A DNA stretch of 64,000 nucleotides, taken from the NCBI RefSeq assembly GCF_000149955.1, contig NC_030986.1, positions 3,839,732 to 3,903,731 of the forward strand, written 5' to 3'. The notes beneath the pieces were generated by a model that saw nothing but the letters and a program-made list of their open reading frames with translations, was not told the origin of the DNA and made no database searches. This DNA is from Fusarium oxysporum f. sp. lycopersici 4287. Lineage: Eukaryota > Ascomycota > Sordariomycetes > Hypocreales > Nectriaceae. Each line of letters begins with the position of its first letter. Position 1 is the stretch's first letter. The position numbers were made by a program, and so were the translations under genes. Positions 7,059 to 43,066 of the stretch are shown piece by piece.

Positions 7059-10000
7059 ATGTCTGACAGAGGTCGATCGCCTTCCCCGGCTGGGTCTGGA
7101 GGTCCCTCCGGCTCGGGACGACGTCCTTCTCAGTCTCCCGCACGTTCTGCGTCTGGCTCTGCTGCTGGTGGTGCCGCTGTCGGCTACCAGAAACCCCTTG
7201 GCTTTGATCCAGCCAAGCCCCAGGGTCAGGACACCCAAGGCAATACCCGAATGGAATTGCCTCCTGACGCTTACGTGGCCGAGACCAAGAAGGACTTGTT
7301 CACGCTGCGAAATGGGCGCTTCAACACTGAAGGGAAACCCGAGCAGATCGAGGTCAACCAGTACAGGATGACCAAGTTTGACTACAACAAAAAGATTTAT
7401 CAGTACGACGTAAGTAGCTTCCATATGAGTTCATATTTCATGCATTCTAACACACACTACAGGTTTTCATCTCTCCCAACCCGGACAAGATCGGCCCCGT
7501 CATGAAGAAGATCTGGGCGCATGCCACTACTCGCAATGCCCTGAAAGCCTACAAGTTCGACATGTGGCTCTTCGATGGGAAGAAGCTGGCATGGAGTCCT
7601 GCTCTTGTGGAACGTGGCGAGGCTCGTTTCACTGTCGACCTTGACGAGGGCAAACGACCTGCTGGTGGGAGAGCTCGCGAAGGCGGCAAGTTTCTTGTCA
7701 CAATTCGCAAAACTACCGAAATTCAAGTTTCTGCTCTTCAAGGTTATCTCGAACACAAGATATCTTTCAACAACAGCGTTCAAGAGGCGCTGAACTTTAT
7801 GGATCATCTTGTGCGACAGTGGCCTTCCAGGAACCTCCTGGCCATCAAACGAAACTTCTACAAGACTGGTCAGCCTGGAGCTCCTCTTCAGGATGGAGCT
7901 ATTGTTGAGGTTCACAAGGGCACATATGCTTCCATCCGCATGAGTGACAATATCAAGCAGAGAGGTGTTGGCCTCGGCTACAACATTGATGTTGCCAACA
8001 CTTGTTTCTGGATCGGAAATCAGCCCATGGACAAGATGGCTTGCAACTTCCTCGCCACTCTCGATGGGAAGTATGGAGGACATACACCTGCCACCATCAA
8101 TGAGTTGCTCAAGCCTGTCCGGGACCGCAAAACTGGACGCTGGGCCTCTTCGGATGCTTTCAAGCAGCTCCGAAAGATGCGCCGACTCAAATTCAAGATC
8201 AAGCACAAGGGTCGGAAAAACGAGGACAAACTGTACACCATCCAAGACTTTGCCTTCAATGAGAAATTCGGCGAAGCTGGCGCATCGGCCAGGACCTGGA
8301 CTTTTGAAAAGGACGGGAAAGACATCTCAGTGTATGAGTACTACAAAAAGGAGTACAACGTGACCCTGAGACTGTCTCATCTTCCACTTATTGATGCTGG
8401 AAAAGGTGGCATGATTCCTATGGAGCTTGCCTTCGTTGAGGATATGCAGCGATATCCCTTCAAGCTTAACCCCGAACAGACAGCCGCCATGATCAAGATT
8501 GCTGTCACCCGTCCAGCTATTCGCAAGCGGGACATTCAGAACGGAGCAGCTGCCCTGCAGATCGGTCAAGATCCGTTCCTGAAGGAGTATGGCGTCAACT
8601 TTGAGCCGCAGTTTGCAAAGACCGAGGCACGCATTCTGACTGCCCCAATTGTCAGATTTGGACAAGGTACAGCCGAACCCAGATTTGCTGGTCGTTGGGA
8701 CTTGCGAGGCAAGAAGTTCTGGAAACAGAATGTCGCGCCTCTCCAGAACTGGGGCTTCATCGCCCTAGAGCAACAAGTGCAGCTACCCGTTATGCAGGCT
8801 TTTGCCAATACCTTCAAGAGCACCTACATCGGTCATGGAGGTAAAGTGACTGCCGACCCTATCCTTTTGCCTACACCTGGCCCTCTCCGCTTTGATGCTG
8901 CGGGCGCCATTGCGCACGCTCATGAGCAGATCACGAAGCAACGGGGCTACACCCAGCTCTTGTTTGTTATCGTCTCCAAGAAGAACAGTGGAACTTATGA
9001 GCGCCTCAAGAAGTCTGCGGATTGCAGATTTGGTATTCTTACCCAGGTCGTCCTCGGCAACCACGTGCAAAAGAACAATGGGCAATACCATTCAAATGTG
9101 TGCATGAAGGTGAACGCCAAGCTTGGTGGTGCCACTTCCTGCACTCCTCCTCTGTGGAAGACACCTACATTCTTCCCCGACAACCGCCCTACCATGATTG
9201 TAGGTGTTGATGTATCCCACGCCGCTCCTGGAGGCGTAACCCCATCCACCGCCTCGATGACTATGTCCGTGGATAAGGATGCCACTCGTTACGCCGCCGT
9301 TGCTGAGACCAATGGATACCGTGTCGAGATGCTGACCCCCTCGAACATCCGATTCATGTTCGGAGAACTCATACCTCGTTGGAGAGCCAATCACCAAGGA
9401 CTGGTTCCTAAACACCTGATCTATTTCCGAGACGGCGTAGGAGAGGGACAATTTGCTTACGTGTTGGACCAGGAAGTCGAAGAGATCAAGAAATATCTTG
9501 CCACGATTCTCCCTGGTGGACAGATGCCGAAATTCACTGTGATTGTGGCCACCAAGCGTCACCACATTCGTTTCTTCCCTCAGAGAGGAGATAAGAATGG
9601 CAATCCTCTGCCTGGTACTTTGGTTGAGCGAGAAGTCACGCATCCTTTCATGTTTGACTTTTACCTCAATTCACACGTTGCTATCCAAGGAACCGCTCGA
9701 CCGGTTCACTACCACGTCATCTTGGATGAGATGAACATGCCGGTCAACGATCTACAGAAGATGATCTACCAACAGTGCTACTCGTACGCACGTTCGACCA
9801 CTCCTGTATCACTTCACCCGGCGGTCTACTATGCGCATCTCGCTAGTAACCGAGCTCGCGCTCATGAGAACGTCAACTCTAGTGATGGTTTCCGAATCGG
9901 TCCCAAGGGCCACGAGATCGCTGCGGAGAAGCAGGCGCATGGTGCCTCCACCGGCCTTCCTAACAGGACCGTTGAAGCACCTCCGTTGATCCGCCTTGGC

Positions 10001-10078
10001 GGTGCACTTAGCCAGACGCCTCTGGATGGTGAGCAGCGACAGAGAGACTTTTTTCGCGGCACTATGTGGTACATCTGA
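7059..10078 (+). CDS. qde-2: Argonaute protein (QDE-2 type)
   Basis: Argonaute binds small RNAs and slices matching transcripts; in filamentous fungi it is the effector of quelling/RNA silencing in the cytoplasm. Two exons, 7059-7409 and 7463-10078, split by a 53-nt GT-AG intron, give 988 aa. A disordered Gly/Ser/Arg/Pro N-terminus (about 1-60) is followed by the N domain, linker, PAZ (roughly 330-450), Mid and PIWI. In PIWI the catalytic residues appear present: Asp about 700 in GVDVSH, Glu about 739 in YRVEML, Asp about 774 in FRDGVGEGQF, and His about 866-868 in HYHVILDEM, so slicing should be retained. It ends in MWYI, close to the usual Argonaute C-terminus. The family is certain. Which of the two fungal Argonaute lineages (quelling or meiotic silencing) it belongs to is less sure, so the symbol is provisional. 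Confidence 0.93.
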
Positions 10079-17981: not shown

Positions 17982-17988
17982 TATAAAA
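17982..17988 (+). promoter_or_regulatory. TATA box candidate for GIGAQF copy A
   Basis: TATAAAA lies 157 nt before the proposed start codon at 18145. A similar box precedes copy B. Confidence 0.35.
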
Positions 17989-18144: not shown

Positions 18145-18641
18145 ATGGCAGATACTATACAATCAGAGTAAGTTCTTGCTCCAATACTCTTTGTTGGTGA
18201 ACTTTTTAGTCCCCCACAGGCTATGATGTTGGAATTAAGTTCCTCCCACTGACGAGAAATTTGTTCAGATGTGCTAGCTACGAAGAACATTACTCGATCC
18301 GATCGCAGGATGATTTGATCTGGTCCCTAGAGAGACAATCTTCAGTCCAGTTACATGCCTATCTCCGACAACCATCCAGGGACGACCCTTTTTCAGCATG
18401 GTCGACCACGCCCGTTGATCCTTCCTCGAGCCTTACCTTTCGGCACATCGAAGCACTGTGGCTTCTTCGTATCACTTCATGCGTTGCATATATCCGTCAC
18501 CGAGCCCTCGTCCTGTTGTTCCAGTCACACGTTCTTGTTGAGCCTGCAGCCCAGACGCATCAACGTCAGTCGCCACAAGCTCACACCGTGGACACTCAGC
18601 TTGATACGTACGGCATAGGAGCGCAGTTCGAAGAGCCCTGA
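18145..18641 (+). CDS. Hypothetical protein, GIGAQF copy A (possibly decayed)
   Basis: I do not recognise this gene. A 23-nt first exon (18145-18167) ends in phase 2 at a perfect GTAAGT donor; an intron with a CTGAC branch site and a TTCAG acceptor joins it to 18269-18641, giving 131 aa. Residues 123-128 are GIGAQF and the protein stops three codons later. The run before it (SPQAHTVDTQLDTY) resembles the segment preceding GIGAQF in copy C at 40.6 kb. Just downstream (18652-18723) another open stretch contains SCH followed by D-V-D-S-M, recalling exon 4 of copy C, but no splice path to it is visible. It may be a truncated or decaying member. Transcription and protein are unproven. Confidence 0.3.
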
Positions 18642-34218: not shown

Positions 34219-34225
34219 TATAAAA
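34219..34225 (+). promoter_or_regulatory. TATA box candidate for GIGAQF copy B
   Basis: TATAAAA lies 220 nt before the proposed start codon at 34445. Confidence 0.35.
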
Positions 34226-34444: not shown

Positions 34445-35270
34445 ATGCCAAACTCTTCAACAAAGGCCACACAAGGATCTGTTCAATCCGAGAACCGAAC
34501 AAACAAGATCAATGGGTACGATGACTCTTCCCTTCAACGCGAATACGGTTGACATCTAATGCATAGACTGTTTTCCAGTCAAGCCACAGCCGAAGATAAG
34601 CAAATCATGATGATGAGATTCGTGAGCGACCTGTACGTGCCTGTTTCCGCACATCTTCAGGACCCACTGTATGTGCCCGGAAGCCACATGCAGGACAGTG
34701 CGAGTTTGGGCCGTTTCATGAACCGCCCGCGGCCCCACTCCTCCACCGGCTTTGAGGGAATCGGGGCCCAGTTTATCGGTAGGCACTCGGGCCCGTTTTG
34801 GCTATGACGGTTCTAACTAACACTAGTAATTCCCTTAGACTCTGGCCTCGGTACGAGTCGCTAGGAAAGTTGTTGCGGCTAAAGACTCGAGTTTATGTGA
34901 TATCCACCTTGAGGTGAGTCCCATTATGGTTATTCTCTCTTCTCTCTTCTCACTAACATGGCTGCTATGGAGTAGGCTAACGCCCAACTGCCACGTTCGC
35001 ACTCCCTGTATTTGGCACGATGTTAGCAAGCTGTGGCCCTACCGTCACAAACCACATCATCATCACTATCACTGGCGATGGACTACCATGAGAATGGCCG
35101 TATTATCTTCAAAGTATTTGCTTCTTAGATTTAATAGTTTAGAAACACATATGCAAATCAAACATAGAAACCTAAATGAAACGATCTTCAATCTCTCATT
35201 GAGTCTAATTCCTAGCTGCCAACTACATTCATCCAAGATCTTGTCGGCAGATGGAACACTATTTCCGTGA
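34445..35270 (+). CDS. Hypothetical protein, GIGAQF copy B
   Basis: No known family recognised. Proposed exons: 34445-34515, 34579-34778, 34865-34913 and 34976-35270 (204 aa). Intron 1 has GTACG and CCAG with a CTAAT branch, phase 2. GIGAQF is at residues 84-89, then a phase-1 intron; exon 3 ends in phase 2 at GTGAGT; exon 4 carries DVSKLW at residues 122-127. All four boundaries parallel copy C at 40.6 kb. Two weaknesses: the acceptor best placed after the branch site (34838) leads to an early stop after GTSR, and the homologous frame needs the next acceptor at 34864. The C-terminal ~75 residues are His-rich and unlike copy C. It may be a diverged or partly broken paralogue. Confidence 0.42.
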
Positions 35271-38200
35271 CAGCAGACACAGTCAGACGCGATGTTGCTT
35301 GACCCGTGCGGCATACGGCAACCAAAACATGTTGACTGGGACTGGCCATGGGTTTCCTTGATGTGGCGCTATCTGTGAGTATTGCCAAGACTCGTTTTTC
35401 CATCCGCGATCCGGCTGCTTGTTAGGCTTGATGATGTCCGGGGGTCATTTACAGCTCAGGGCAAGGTAGCCGTATACCGCGACATGGTCTGCAGGGTTAC
35501 ACCGTCGTCGATGGCAGAATGCCCCCATGCCGGGACATTATGCCCTCGAATCGGCTGTTTTGAGTGTAAGTTGAAGGGCCAAACGAAACTCTTTGGTTAC
35601 CTCCAGATAGTGGGGGCGCTATTGTCAAAGCGCCAACCCTGGTTGAGATGGCTTGGGGGGCCTCAAAAGCTTCAACGCCCAAATTCGGCTGGACCATGCT
35701 CCTGGAAGGCAGAAGCTAGGAAAGGGGGGGACTCAGTTCCATAGCCTGGACGTTGATAAACAAAAATCTCCTTGGCATTGAAGCGGTAGCTATCATGAGC
35801 GCCATATAAGCTAGCTGTTACTCAAATCGGCCACCCACCTTATTAGGATGGTCGAAATCGAATGTTAGACATGCAGCTGCACCCCGACCTCATTTGCATC
35901 GTGTTGAAACGCTCTAACTCGGCTGCTCGGAGGGCTCAAATGGTATCCCGTATCGAGTTCGGCTTTCAATCTTCAGAAGCTCACACTTGCACCCCCCGGC
36001 CTGTTGCTTTCCTTTCCCCGGCAGCCACCACTTCGTCAAGGAGAGCAAACAATGACCAGGGCCTTGAGCCCCCCGGCATTTAGGCCCCCCTTCCTGGCTC
36101 TGATTCTGTAGCTGCAAATCATTCCGAATGTTCTGTGACATGGACACATGGACCATGGCTAGCATAGGCGAGATTCACCCCTAGAGGGCCAGTACCTGCG
36201 TTTTGTCTCCTGCCAAAGGATCGGCATAACGAAGCAGAACATTACCAGGGTGCATGCACACCGCCAAACTTTCATCCCAGGAGTGACAATGTGGGAGCAA
36301 GAGGCTCTTCCTTGTCTTTGTATCACGGTAGATAGGCGACCAAAGCACTTGTTTACCGTTTAATTTAGCCATTATTTGGCATCTACGAGCCGTTTATGAT
36401 GGGCCTGAAGGTAATAATGTGCCTTGTGCAAAGTGACGTTTTCCAAAACGAGGCTCGCAAAGACAGCTCGACTCAAATCTCACACGAGATAGGAAGGAAG
36501 AAGACGTGCAAGAAGAACGCTTCATTGCGCCCCCAGTGTGTCGCACGTCGACAGAAGACTCCATAAATTAGTTCAAGAATACTGTATGGGCTTCCTGGCT
36601 GTTGAGTATGATCATAGCCGGCACCTGTAGGAAGAAGCACGGGATCGACATAATCACAGTCGGTCGGCAAACCCCAATACTCACTCCCATGTCATTGAGC
36701 AGGGGTGTCATGGGGTGCACCCCAGCATCTTCTCAACATTCTGGCGCTAGACTTGTACAGGCGCCAGCACCTGGGGTTTGCTTCTAGAAAGAAGTATGGA
36801 CTTGAGCTTGTCTTGTCCATGGTGCGCATGCCATGCACGAGACTGCGCTGCAATCGAGTCGATGAGACAGATATTCTGCCACACACCTCTCAAATTTTAA
36901 TTTGACAGCCTCCTGCAAACCCTGCACTCTCTTGATTCACACCCACACAGGCAAGATCTCAAAAGCAGGGGAACGAAAAGGACAACGGCCGCCTGGATCC
37001 GAGGAACATTGTCAGCCCAGCAGTTGTAAAGCCCCCCTGGTGGGTCTGGGATCTGGGATGTCCTCCCCGCGCGCCCAAGAGATTCCCTTCTTTGATATCC
37101 CTGTCTCACCTCAAGACTCAAGATCCCATCGGGGCTTGAACACAGATGCTGATAACTTTGTGCTCGCTGACACCGCACTCAGTCCGCATGAGCTCGCTCT
37201 TCGTCCACTTACATCACTAGATTCACTTCGATGACAGCCTGTACTGCACGGAAGAGCTCAATTTCAAGGCCGGTAAGTCCGTGGCGGGGCCTTATCGTAA
37301 GAAGAAGTTGTGATTCCAAGAAGCTTGAAGTGGTGTGGCTGGGTTGTCCTATGGCGCCACAGTTATGAGGCGGTGCGTCATTAATCCACTTCAAGACAGA
37401 CGACAAAGTCGCATTGCATTCCTTAAATCTTGGCATTGCCCAACGCCGTACGGGGCGACGCCAAGGTGCCCCACAGAGCAATTGACAACGGATGGCTCCC
37501 CCATTGACATGCATCCAGCGATGCTCGCCAGCTTGTTCAAGGGGTATGGGATCAAAGGGGGGTGGTGGGTGCAGTAATCTCGGGGTGCTTCTTGCTCGTG
37601 TTGAGCAAAGAAGGAAGTGCAATCAAGCATAATTTCTCGCGAACTCGGGAACCATATTGAGGTGTCAGGGAGGAGGGTATGTTGCGCTGGCCAGTATTTT
37701 CCGGCACGCACGTATGGAAGTATGTAGTAACCCCTGGCCCAAGATCCTGGGCCGAGCAGACGAGTTGCAGTGCGTCCACCCACCAAGCGCCGAATCCCAT
37801 GCCTAGGGTGCTGCGTTCGCGGGTATAAGAGGTGCTAGGTGATGGATACATACCATGGATGGTACAGCCGGGAGCCCCCCCGATTGTGAGTCGAGTGAAG
37901 TCAGGTTCGTTGTGGTGCTTCATTCATTTCATCTTCCATCCGTAATCCCTTTGTTTCGTTTCCTTGCTCACACCCCCTCCCCTGCCGAGCCACCATGGCA
38001 TTCATTGAACAAAAAGCGAAACTGAAATTCGGGTTTCGAGAATGAACAACCAAGGCGGAAACCATAATTAGAACCCCGGGTCCGTTGTGTTTTTTATTTT
38101 TCTTCTTCTTGCTTTTTGTCTCTCTCCATCACATGCCACCGAACCGCGGAACAAGTCAAAGCCTGATTGACGATCACATGGCTGGCTAATCTGTCAGTCG

Positions 38201-40606
38201 CGTTTCATTGATTGATTTGGAACTTACGCGACTGAGGCAAGGCCGGGTAAGCTGTGTAGCTATTCCTGGCATTGGCCCAATCTCCTAGTTAGCTTGGAAA
38301 GCGGGCCTCGTCATCTCGCTGAGATCTTTTTCAACCTCTGTTTAGGGGGGGAAAGCTTGACGTAAAGCATAGAGTGACGGCCATAACTTGATTGTCCGAG
38401 AATCTCAGAGCTGTGTCTTTGTGATATCTCGGGGACATATTTTCGGCGCGGTGGTATTTCTCCGCAACTGAGCTGCCATCTGAAATTGGATCTGAACCAC
38501 TCGAGTCAAACTCGCTCAGCCTTAACAAGGGGGTGTGTAGCTAATAAGATCTTGTGCTGGTGCTGCTTAGTGGACCGTTTCTCCAGACAAGCCCGCCCGG
38601 TCGATCTGGGCGAACCGTCCGCATGGGTACCCGGAACCTAAAAGGCAACCCTGAAAAACAATGAATGGTCATCCTGTCATTGAGCTCGGGGTGCTTGCTG
38701 CAGATGGACTTGGTGCTGGTGCTGGCGAGCGGTCCGGCACGCCACACGTCTTGTCAACGCCCTCCATCCACGTCCACCAACAATTGTAGACGGACAGACG
38801 TTGGGGGTTTTTTTTTTTAAGGGTACACTGATATTTTAATTGATGCTGCATCACGACGGGCGGATGATCATTGCCTTTCCGCGGACCCATTTGCAGTCCT
38901 TTTAGTGCCAGAGTACAAAACCGGCCCCTTGTTCAAGTTGCGGTAATCAATCCTTTGTGAGTTAGCCAGGTAATCTTTATTCTTCTCATTCGACTCAATG
39001 AATGCGAAAAAATCTGGGGCGCGCGCGCGCGTCAGTCTTTGAAGAAGCCCCAGTACTGCTATCGTCACCGTCATACGTCAGTGATGGTTCGACAAGTGAT
39101 CAAACCCAGCCCAATAGCAATCACTGGTGCATCCATTGGCTATTGATGCTTCGGACGGGACTACTAATTTTGGTGCTAAACCAAGGCTAGATGAGACGTT
39201 TGGACTTGAGGTCCACGTCGTGGGGAAGCGAGAGATCATCAGAGATCCATCTATCCTTATCACCGTACCCTCTTTTTTTTTTTTTTTTTGTCTCGCTCTC
39301 TCTCACGGTTCAGGGTTTCGTTGCCTTTTCTTCGGGGGACTCGACCAAAATGAGGATGAAGAATTCGAGGGGATGAGACGAGAGAGGGGTGCAGGTAAGT
39401 CTGCGGGGTAGTCAAGCTAACTCTGTGTCTGCCGCTTGTCTGCTGCTGTCTCTCGTCGACAACAATGACATCCATCGACGGAATGCCATGGGTTTCTTCT
39501 GTGCAGGATACACGGCTTCAAGGGTCTGGATCGCCTGTGGCAGGACCAAAAGCGAACATGCCTCAAGGAACAGGAAACCCTTGTGCTGTGCTGGGCTGGG
39601 CTTGACTGGGCCACCTAGAGCCAGGGACGTTGAGGGGAGGGGAGAGAAGTGAGTCCAAGTCACAGCGGAAGCCCAGAGTCGTCGGAGGGCCGGGCAGTGC
39701 AAATGGAAGGCCGGCGCTCGCTGAGCTGGGCTGGGCTAAGGCCAAGGCGCCGGTTTGCACGTCAGTCAACTTGCATCTTCCTTTTTTATGGATGCTCCCT
39801 GGGCCTGCTGCTCCTCTTTTGCTCTGTGTTGTGCTGGGGTGAGTTGGGTTGGGTTGGCTTTGCAGTGGATGGATGCCATCATAATTCACCCCCCCGGGCG
39901 TATCTGGTTCTCCTCCCCGCTCCCTGTCCCCTCTCCGTGCTCCGTGCTCCGCTGCCCACTCGCTCACACATTGGATGGATCGTTGTGCAACTTTTTTTAC
40001 TGTTACTTGATTCACCGTCATACTACCTAGTACCTTATTTTTTTCCTTCTCTATGCTCATGCTTGATACATCCATCCCATCCTTTCATCCCTCTCTACCG
40101 AGTACCTTAGATATAAACTTGTTCACCCCCTTACAACTCTTTACTTTAACTTCATCACCATCACTCACTTACCTTCTACGCATTACCTTACCTCACATTC
40201 TTGCTCTTCCTAGCTACCTTGCCTTACGCCGTAGCTGTTTGCCCATCGAGCTCTTGCGGGTGCTGTCCCTCCCCCACCCGCCGCCGCCGCCGCCGTCTCT
40301 ACCTATCTCCTCCAGCTTTCACCCACTTCCTCCTCGCTCTCCTCTGTGCGTTGAACACCGCTGCTCGCCTTCTGCACTGCATCACTTCTAGCTCATGCTG
40401 CTCGGACCCTTCCTTCGTATCCATTCTTATATTATTATTCTCATCGGTTGTTGGCAAAGGCCGTATTCGTTGGCGTCGTCGTTCGCTTCCGTCCGTCACT
40501 ATCATCACCACCGACATCGCCGCCGCCGCAATCGCTTCATCCATAACAATTTCGGTCTTCCTACCTTCGATCTATACCGCCCGTTCAATATCGCCCTTCA
40601 ACAGTC
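35271..40606. other. Gene-poor spacer ending in the CT-rich leader of copy C
   Basis: About 5.3 kb. From 35.3 to 39.3 kb no supported gene. Homopolymers and simple tracts occur near 38.8 kb (T9), 39.02 kb (alternating GC) and 39.27 kb (T17). From about 39.3 to 40.6 kb the top strand becomes CT-rich with a TATAAA at 40112-40117, which looks like a promoter plus long leader of the gene starting at 40607. A (CCG)n tract lies near 40278. Confidence 0.5.
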
Positions 40607-41287
40607 ATGTCTTCCGTCGCCCCTCATCAGGGTTCGGCCGTCGGGTACGTTGCGTTGCGTTGCGTTGCCCGCTGAGGAAGCACGTGTTGGACTTTCTCGG
40701 TATTAGGTGATGGAGAATGCAGCTAATAGATGACGATGGTAGCGTTGCGGTAGAAGCTCGCCAAGAAGCCCCAGAACTGTCGCAGAACCGTGTGGCTCCG
40801 TACGCTCACCATAACGTCTTTGCCCACATCCAGTCTCGTGGTGCCAACAATGGTCACGTTGCTGGCGGTCAACCTCGAGAACATAGCATTGCGAGCCTGG
40901 AAGCCGGCATGGCCAGGTACCAGCCGATGCATTCTGTCGTTACCGTTCCGTCAAACTCAAACTTGGCTGGTATCGGTGCACAGTTCAAGGGATTGTTCAA
41001 AGGTTCGTCGCCAGTTCCTGTCCCTAGACCTTGGTCATAAGCTAACAGTAGGGGCTCCAGACTAGCCGCGTTGGTTCGTCCCAATACCTTCCCTCAACAT
41101 TACTCAACAAGGTAGGTTTGTGCGTTTCGTTGACTTTTCTTTCCTTAACTTGCTTTCTCGTTTTTCTGATAGACGGCATCTCCTTGTCCGCAGTTGCCAC
41201 AATCTCCAAGTCGTTGACCTGAACCAACTCTGGGAGACTACTGTCGAGACACATATGAAGCTGGGCCCACGGGACCAGCAATGTTGA
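40607..41287 (+). CDS. Hypothetical protein, GIGAQF copy C (best-preserved copy)
   Basis: No known family recognised. Four exons, 40607-40644, 40743-41002, 41066-41111 and 41173-41287, read in frame to 152 aa. Every intron is GT-AG; introns 1 and 2 have CTAAT and CTAAC branch sites about 17-20 nt before the chosen acceptor. The protein has no signal peptide or membrane segment. It contains HHNVFAHIQ, then ASLEAGMARYQPMHS, GIGAQF (residues 89-94), LVRPNTFPQHYSTR (exon 3), VRSCHNL and DLNQLW (130-135), ending QQC. Copy B shares the exon phases and most of these marks. The gene has a long CT-rich leader as in well-expressed genes. A soluble, possibly regulatory protein is all that can be inferred. 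Confidence 0.55.
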
Positions 41288-43066
41288 TGTGATATAGAAA
41301 CCTCCAAGGTGGCATCACTGCGTATGCAAGTTGGTCGAAGTGGTTCTGTTGATCAGAAGCCGCCAGGAGGTTGAAGCATATACCCTACCATTTTTCTGTT
41401 TGTAAATATTATACCCATTTTGCCTTCTGTGCGACGGGAAAGAGGCCCTGTTTTCAGCTTTCGTGCATCGCTCTTATATGTTTGGTTTCTCCGTTTCTTT
41501 TCCTATCGTGTGTATTGTGTTTGGAGTGTTTCAAATTCTGTATTGCTGTTGGTGTTTTCTCGGTTATTTGCTGGCGTTTTAGAGCATTGCAGACCGCTTC
41601 TCCAAGAAGCAGCGGTATTGGAGTGCATGGGCGTGGAATGAAGGAGGAAACCATGCCCCGAGCAACCTGATACCATTTTGGGATCGCAATATGTGGTACG
41701 AGGGACTGCTTATTCTTCTCATTGCGTGAATCGTTCCCTTGTGTTCCAGTCGGCATGAATCTCATGAGCATACGTCAGCATAGGCCCAGAGCTCTCATGC
41801 CGCGGGCGGCACAGGTCGAGACAGCATAAGTCCTGGTTGCGCAAGCCTCACGATGAAAGACTCAAGACGATTGACGATGCACGTTTCCTGGTGGAAGAGA
41901 TGAGAAAACTGAGAATGATGAGGGACAAAGCATGGCACCGAGAGGGGGTTGGGCTTTATCTATTTGTGGGCGGCTCAGTCATCAAACAACCAATCAGGCT
42001 AGAGTTTTCTTGACCTTAGGCCCCAAAACCCATGGATAACAATGCATCATCAACCGAGAGCATAATCCTCGGGCTTCCTGAGGCATACTCTGTGGCCAAT
42101 TATCTCCTGGCAGATCATCAAGGCTCTCCTCCATTACAAGGAGTAGCCCTGTGAAGCTCCATTCATTGGCTTTGGTCGCTCAAACCAGTTGGCCCCATTT
42201 TGGGTGTTTTATCAAAAGTACCGTCTCAAGGGAGCACGGGAGAATGGACTGCATGACTCATAGGTTATTTGTTATTTTGGAGCATCTCCTTCTTGGATCG
42301 AAATGTACAGTTTACGACATGTTGGGTTTATTGTGCTATTATAGATTGGTATCGTTCAGAGCACTAAGGTATATTGCATTACACAGGGGTAGACAGGCAT
42401 TGATTATAAATAAAAAACATAATGTGGTGGGCATGGGTGTTCCTATCCTCTAGAGTTCTGTGAAGCTTCAATTATTCATCTCTTGAAGCATAAGTTCACG
42501 GCGTATGTTGTCATCATCTCATCACAACTTCCCCAAATGCGTGATCTGATCTTGCGAGATGACCAAAACCGAACCTAGAGCGCTACATCTCGACAACCAC
42601 TTCGTGGCTTTACAATCTGTGCTTGCAAGCTCGAACCTGTCATATGAATCATCCCAGTTCTCGTTTGAGCAGCCCTCTCGTAAACTTTCACATGTTTTTG
42701 CCAGTCTATAGCAATGAATTTCTTTCATAATTTCGTAAATCCGTAAGTCCTGCTCATTTCGTCACGCTACACATCATAGCCCAAGCGTGTTGCTCACTTC
42801 GAATATTGGCTATACCATGAGCGACACGCTTTGGCAGGCTGTCATATATCAAAGCGTCCTGGCGCTAATAAATCCGATGATCCCAAAGAGGAGCAAATCA
42901 TTGGTGCGTCGAATATCCCATAGCTACCATAAACACTACATAGTCCTATCATCTTGAGGATTGCACTGAGCAATCTCCGGTGTTCCCTGGTTTATCACTC
43001 CATGTCCGTCAAGATTTCAGCCTGATATGGCCTTGTACCCATGCTATAGGCACACCAGACGCATAA
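41288..43066. other. Intergenic between copy C and the Zn2Cys6 gene
   Basis: T-rich 3' flank of copy C up to about 41.6 kb, then spacer. Open frames at 41371-41670 and 42151-42453 show no features beyond low-complexity hydrophobic runs. Confidence 0.5.

What the first reader, a model, noticed from the sequence alone, without database searches (positions are those of the whole stretch)
34445..41287. Two paralogous small genes of an unrecognised family (GIGAQF / D-x-x-x-L-W)
The gene at 40607-41287 (copy C) and that at 34445-35270 (copy B) share: a short first exon with a phase-2 intron; AH[IL]Q; ASL followed by M-x-R and HS; GIGAQF encoded by different codons (GGT ATC GGT GCA CAG TTC against GGA ATC GGG GCC CAG TTT); a phase-1 intron within five codons of it; a third exon of 46 or 49 nt with L-x-R-x-x-T and S-T ending in phase 2; and DLNQLW / DVSKLW at exactly residues 15-20 of exon 4. 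Matching architecture with silent codon change argues for protein-level selection rather than DNA duplication or chance. I know no described family with these motifs.
Basis: partly seen in the sequence, partly recalled or inferred. Interest (0 to 1): 0.82.

Follow-up and report, generated by a model that had tools for sequence, protein, structure and literature searches.

The report
Three small Fusarium genes sharing GIGAQF
Three small, uncharacterised genes, with named relatives so far only in Fusarium, lie close together and share one six-residue motif, but most of the further similarities claimed between two of them do not hold up, so this is a modest curiosity rather than a demonstrated new protein family.

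Summary
A codon-degenerate GIGAQF pattern occurs exactly three times in the 61-Mb genome (Fusarium oxysporum, chromosome-scale contig C1), all on the + strand within 22.4 kb of this window: copy A (18612), B (34757), C (40969). All three genes have relatives, the named ones all Fusarium, at 63-100% identity. B is already annotated as FOXG_17935, hypothetical protein.

The rest weakens or fails. None of the 40 relatives of B and C carries D-x-x-x-L-W. 21 of 24 B relatives end in DSGLGTSR or a close variant soon after the motif. C relatives show other 3' ends. AH[IL]Q, M-x-R (in B) and HS (in C) are not generally kept. With GIGAQF removed, A, B and C are no more alike than shuffled profiles.

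Best reading: three small lineage-restricted proteins without an obvious signal peptide, with a short motif towards the C-terminus. They are either ancient tandem paralogues eroded to that motif or unrelated genes sharing it. Common descent and shared function are inferred, not shown.

The parts
18145..18641 (+). Copy A: exons 18145-18167 and 18269-18641 (incl. TGA), 131 aa, ends ...DTYGIGAQFEEP*
   Evidence: six relatives at 76-97% identity; motif at 18612-18629
34445..34864 (+). Copy B (FOXG_17935): exons 34445-34515 and 34579-34778, then an intron and a short last exon coding for D-S-G-L-G-T-S-R with stop TAG at 34862-34864; 98 or 102 aa in relatives by alternative acceptors
   Evidence: tblastn of P0017 and P0018 covers 34445-34861
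40607..41002 (+).
34865..35270 (+).
   Evidence: one relative (P0040) uses the exon-3 part
41066..41287 (+).
17982..17987 (+). TATAAA 163 nt before the ATG of A
   Evidence: a consensus match only (15 such words on the + strand of the window)
34219..34224 (+). TATAAA 226 nt before the ATG of B
   Evidence: a consensus match only
40112..40117 (+). TATAAA 495 nt before the ATG of C
   Evidence: a consensus match only

Best explanation
A, B and C are three small lineage-restricted Fusarium protein genes in a loose cluster on chromosome 1 that other Fusarium genomes appear to share. Each makes a protein of roughly 100-130 residues without an obvious signal peptide or known domain. C is probably largely disordered (low-confidence model). 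GIGAQF lies within about 30 residues of the C-terminus in A, B and those annotated C models that hold it. Most likely the three are old tandem duplicates that diverged until only this short motif stayed recognisable, and the motif works as a short linear docking motif for a shared partner. Shown: the three sites, their genomic uniqueness, the relatives, the lack of other similarity. Inferred: common descent, docking role, intracellular location.
For: The pattern has 3 hits in 61.2 Mb, all in 22.4 kb on one strand. By composition, 6.5e-9 hexapeptides shared by all three proteins are expected. Relatives are found for all three (C 16, B 24, A 6 hits). Pairs of the three appear with the same longest-contig length or near locus numbers in several other strains and species. 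The motif is the best-conserved six-residue window of A (rank 1 of 126) and rank 14 of 93 in B. All three first introns are in phase 2 after a short first exon. Profile comparison with the motif included gives P 0.0015 for B-C, 8.8e-4 for A-C, 0.0041 for A-B. tblastn aligns B with C collinearly at 25-28% identity, not significantly (E 0.23-2.9). The C model has mean pLDDT 54 and pTM 0.14 with two short helices.
Against: Outside the motif there is no detectable similarity: scores reached by 66, 296 and 190 of 300 shuffles for B-C, A-C and A-B. The motif is not specially conserved within C relatives (rank 42 of 111; exact in 9 of 16), which fits poorly with a strictly required docking peptide and with slow erosion around a fixed core. 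The three promoters share no more short words than random stretches. No DNA similarity joins the three regions.
Confidence: 0.4

Rival explanations
1. Three unrelated small genes that share GIGAQF by chance, picked out by a reader scanning for shared motifs.
For: No similarity outside the motif. Sharing of a hexapeptide by two such proteins is not astronomically rare (6.3e-4 expected for B-C), and a reader scans many windows and motifs. The motif drifts in C relatives.
Against: Triple sharing is expected at 6.5e-9 by composition, before any correction for scanning. All three genomic hits cluster in 22.4 kb on one strand, with 0 control hits. The motif lies towards the C-terminus each time.
Confidence: 0.25
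2. One reading: a four-exon paralogous family with GIGAQF and D-x-x-x-L-W.
For: The frames can be spliced as described.
Against: 0 of 40 B and C relatives carry D...LW. P0040 lacks GIGAQF and joins its exon 3 to DNA at 35388-35716. B exons 3-4 look non-coding. 21 of 24 B relatives stop before them.
Confidence: 0.05
3. Unrelated genes that acquired the same motif by selection for one partner (convergence), without common descent.
For: Same evidence as for the docking motif, plus absence of other similarity. The low-confidence models of A (long helices) and C (two short helices) differ.
Against: Clustering in 22.4 kb on one strand and phase-2 first introns in all three favour descent.
Confidence: 0.2
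4. The transcripts act mainly as RNA and the frames are incidental.
For: Long leaders are possible (TATAAA to ATG up to 495 nt). Codon score of A is only at the 95th percentile of non-coding.
Against: Frames annotated and alike in many Fusarium species, coding-like codon use of B and C exons 1-2, no Rfam match in 17000-42500.
Confidence: 0.05

Closest known systems
FOXG_17935 and annotated 'hypothetical proteins' of other Fusarium species (FVEG_14735, FCOIX_4629/4631, FVER53263_00795/00800, F52700_12563/12567)
   Same: These are the genes in question or their relatives
   Different: Annotated singly; no call showed them described as related to each other. Nothing in print was found under five locus names, three of which (FVEG_00795, FVEG_00800, FOXG_00793) were my guesses, or under GIGAQF (open-licence library, main texts only)
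Lineage-restricted (orphan) small-protein genes of fungi
   Same: Small, no Pfam domain, all named hits in Fusarium, unknown function
   Different: Many fungal orphans code for small secreted proteins (the abstract of PMC7105643, start seen in the listing, says most small secreted proteins are coded by orphan genes); these three show no strongly hydrophobic N-terminus

Membership tests
   exact in 20 of 24 B and 9 of 16 C relatives
   0 of 24 B and 0 of 16 C relatives
   annotated relatives show the same donor for B and C, some with another acceptor. No RNA evidence
   66 of 300 shuffles reach the score without the motif; no detectable similarity, which does not exclude ancient descent
Lineage-restricted (orphan) Fusarium genes | No known domain | tested here: met
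PDB searched for C only, best E 1.9
Lineage-restricted (orphan) Fusarium genes | Relatives confined to Fusarium | tested here: inconclusive
   all hits that show a species name are Fusarium, but the search needs shared exact words and annotated proteins; five hits (P0010, P0012, P0014, P0015, P0038) show no species
Small secreted proteins | N-terminal signal peptide | tested here: not met
   N-terminal hydropathy low (max 15-residue means in the first 30 residues: A -0.64, B -0.87, C 0.71); crude test, no dedicated predictor

The most novel reading that the evidence does not exclude
An ancient Fusarium tandem gene family has diverged so far that only a GIGAQF peptide towards the C-terminus is left, which would make it a new short linear motif recognised by one partner shared by three otherwise dissimilar small proteins.
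Probability: 0.25. Interest if true: 0.45.

Novelty: new member of a known kind. Interest (0 to 1): 0.25.

Why it matters
If the three genes are one family, they are a clean case of paralogues eroded to a six-residue core, useful for studying how lineage-restricted genes diverge and how short motifs persist. If not, the case shows how exon boundaries chosen after the fact can produce a convincing but false shared architecture.

Tried and rejected
No DNA similarity was found between the A, B and C regions. Shared promoter words: none beyond chance. Rfam: none in 17000-42500. Literature by locus names, GIGAQF and orphan-gene terms gave nothing on these genes (only listings with the starts of abstracts seen, no paper opened; of 19 papers, 10 were listed). 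In one search the row 'C alt last exon' was given in the wrong frame and is not used. The codon scores were repeated with trimmed ends, and the latter are cited. P0040 (no motif, other exons) was left out of alignment A4, and P0016 (no motif) out of A3 and the C profile; both are counted.

Full report
The window is part of a 61.2-Mb genome in 71 contigs, contig C1:3839732-3903731. C1 is 6,854,980 bases long, the same as the longest contig listed for FOXG_17935 of F. oxysporum f. sp. lycopersici 4287, a 102-aa protein identical to copy B over 91% of the query. I take the genome to be that strain; this is an inference from contig length and identity, and 'chromosome 1' is recalled.

The observation. 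Both GIGAQF sites are present with different codons. A fully codon-degenerate pattern for GIGAQF matches three places in the whole genome, all in this window and all on the + strand: 18612, 34757 and 40969 (window coordinates). The reversed control has none. A looser pattern has 44 matches against 38 for its control, so there is no sign of a wider dispersed family. The third copy, A, lies outside the coordinates given to me.

Gene models. A: 18145-18167 joined to 18269-18641, 131 aa. B: 34445-34515 joined to 34579-34778. C: 40607-40644 joined to 40743-41002. In all three the first intron is in phase 2. Annotated relatives of B and C show the same first donor, with other acceptors in some species (the GLFSSQAT and DDGS forms).

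Relatives. C has 16 hits (weakest E 9.8e-28), B 24 hits (weakest 2.7e-24) and A 6 hits (weakest 3.4e-60) in the large protein collection. All hits that show a species name are Fusarium; five show none. Identities to the query run 63-88% for C, 79-100% for B and 76-97% for A. B and C lie close together in F. coicis (FCOIX_4629 and 4631, contigs of 196,737 bases); A and B in Fusarium sp. NRRL 52700 (12567 and 12563, contigs of 302,830 bases); A and C in F. verticillioides (FVER53263_00800 and 00795).

The 3' ends. 21 of 24 B hits end in DSG[LV]xT[SR][RH], one to five residues after the motif. None of the 24 has D...LW. P0001 and others read through the donor to a stop after 41037; P0004 and P0006 splice to 41297-41371 (84% identical there); P0016 leaves exon 2 before the motif and matches the exon-3 region in another frame, weakly (E 0.16). 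The true end of C is open.

The minor motifs. AH[IL]Q occurs in 1 of 24 B hits (this strain's own record) and 0 of 16 C hits; most have ARLQ or ARIQ. B's ASLGRFMNR is in 11 of 24, C's [MP]HS in 3 of 16. ASL is kept in 20 of 24 and 15 of 16, B's PHS in 22 of 24, C's M-x-R in 13 of 16. So A-x-[IL]-Q and ASL could be real shared features, but they are short and differently spaced.

Is it a family? With the motif, profile comparisons beat most column shuffles (4, 0 and 7 of 300 shuffles reach the score for B-C, A-C, A-B). Without it nothing is left (66, 296 and 190 of 300). Single consensus sequences agree: with the motif the shuffle fractions are 0.038, 0.0025 and 0.080, without it 0.25, 0.50 and 0.45. 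hhalign with the motif gives P 0.0015, 8.8e-4 and 0.0041, probabilities only 8-23%. By composition, 6.5e-9 hexapeptides shared by all three are expected, and 6.3e-4 for B-C alone. This does not correct for the many windows and motifs a reader scans, but the clustering of all three genomic hits is further support. The motif window is the most conserved in A (rank 1 of 126), 14 of 93 in B and only 42 of 111 in C. Exact GIGAQF is in 5 of 6 A, 20 of 24 B and 9 of 16 C hits.

What they may do. No Pfam match and no solved relative for C (best E 1.9). N-termini are not strongly hydrophobic. AlphaFold2 models are poor: C mean pLDDT 54, pTM 0.14, two short helices; A pLDDT 54, pTM 0.31, longer helices. 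I read C as largely disordered, though low confidence may also reflect shallow alignments (15 and 6 sequences). The best-supported explanation is a set of lineage-restricted small proteins with a short motif towards the C-terminus, probably descended from tandem duplicates and probably docking to a shared partner. The last two steps are inference, and I give the whole 0.4.

Novelty. B is annotated in this strain as a hypothetical protein, and relatives of A and C are so annotated in others. That the three share a unique, clustered motif was not found in print under the names and motif searched, in an open-licence library only. This is a new member of a known kind, lineage-restricted small genes, of modest interest.

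Noticed in passing
18145-18641: A third gene (copy A) with GIGAQF, outside the finding's coordinates. Its stop codon aligns with Trp in the F. annulatum and F. redolens relatives, so the C-terminal tail length varies.
   Followed up: yes
40801-40836: The only three differences of C from the F. oxysporum relative P0001 over 98 residues (S to A, D to H, R to H) fall within eight residues.
   Followed up: no
41297-41371: Two relatives (P0004, P0006) are annotated with a last exon here, 84% identical to the window; a possible true last exon of C.
   Followed up: partly
35388-35716: P0040 of strain Fo5176 has a gene model extending into this stretch with 97-98% identity; may be a separate small gene or a fused prediction.
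   Followed up: no
7502-10078: Argonaute-like gene (Piwi and PAZ domains).
   Followed up: no
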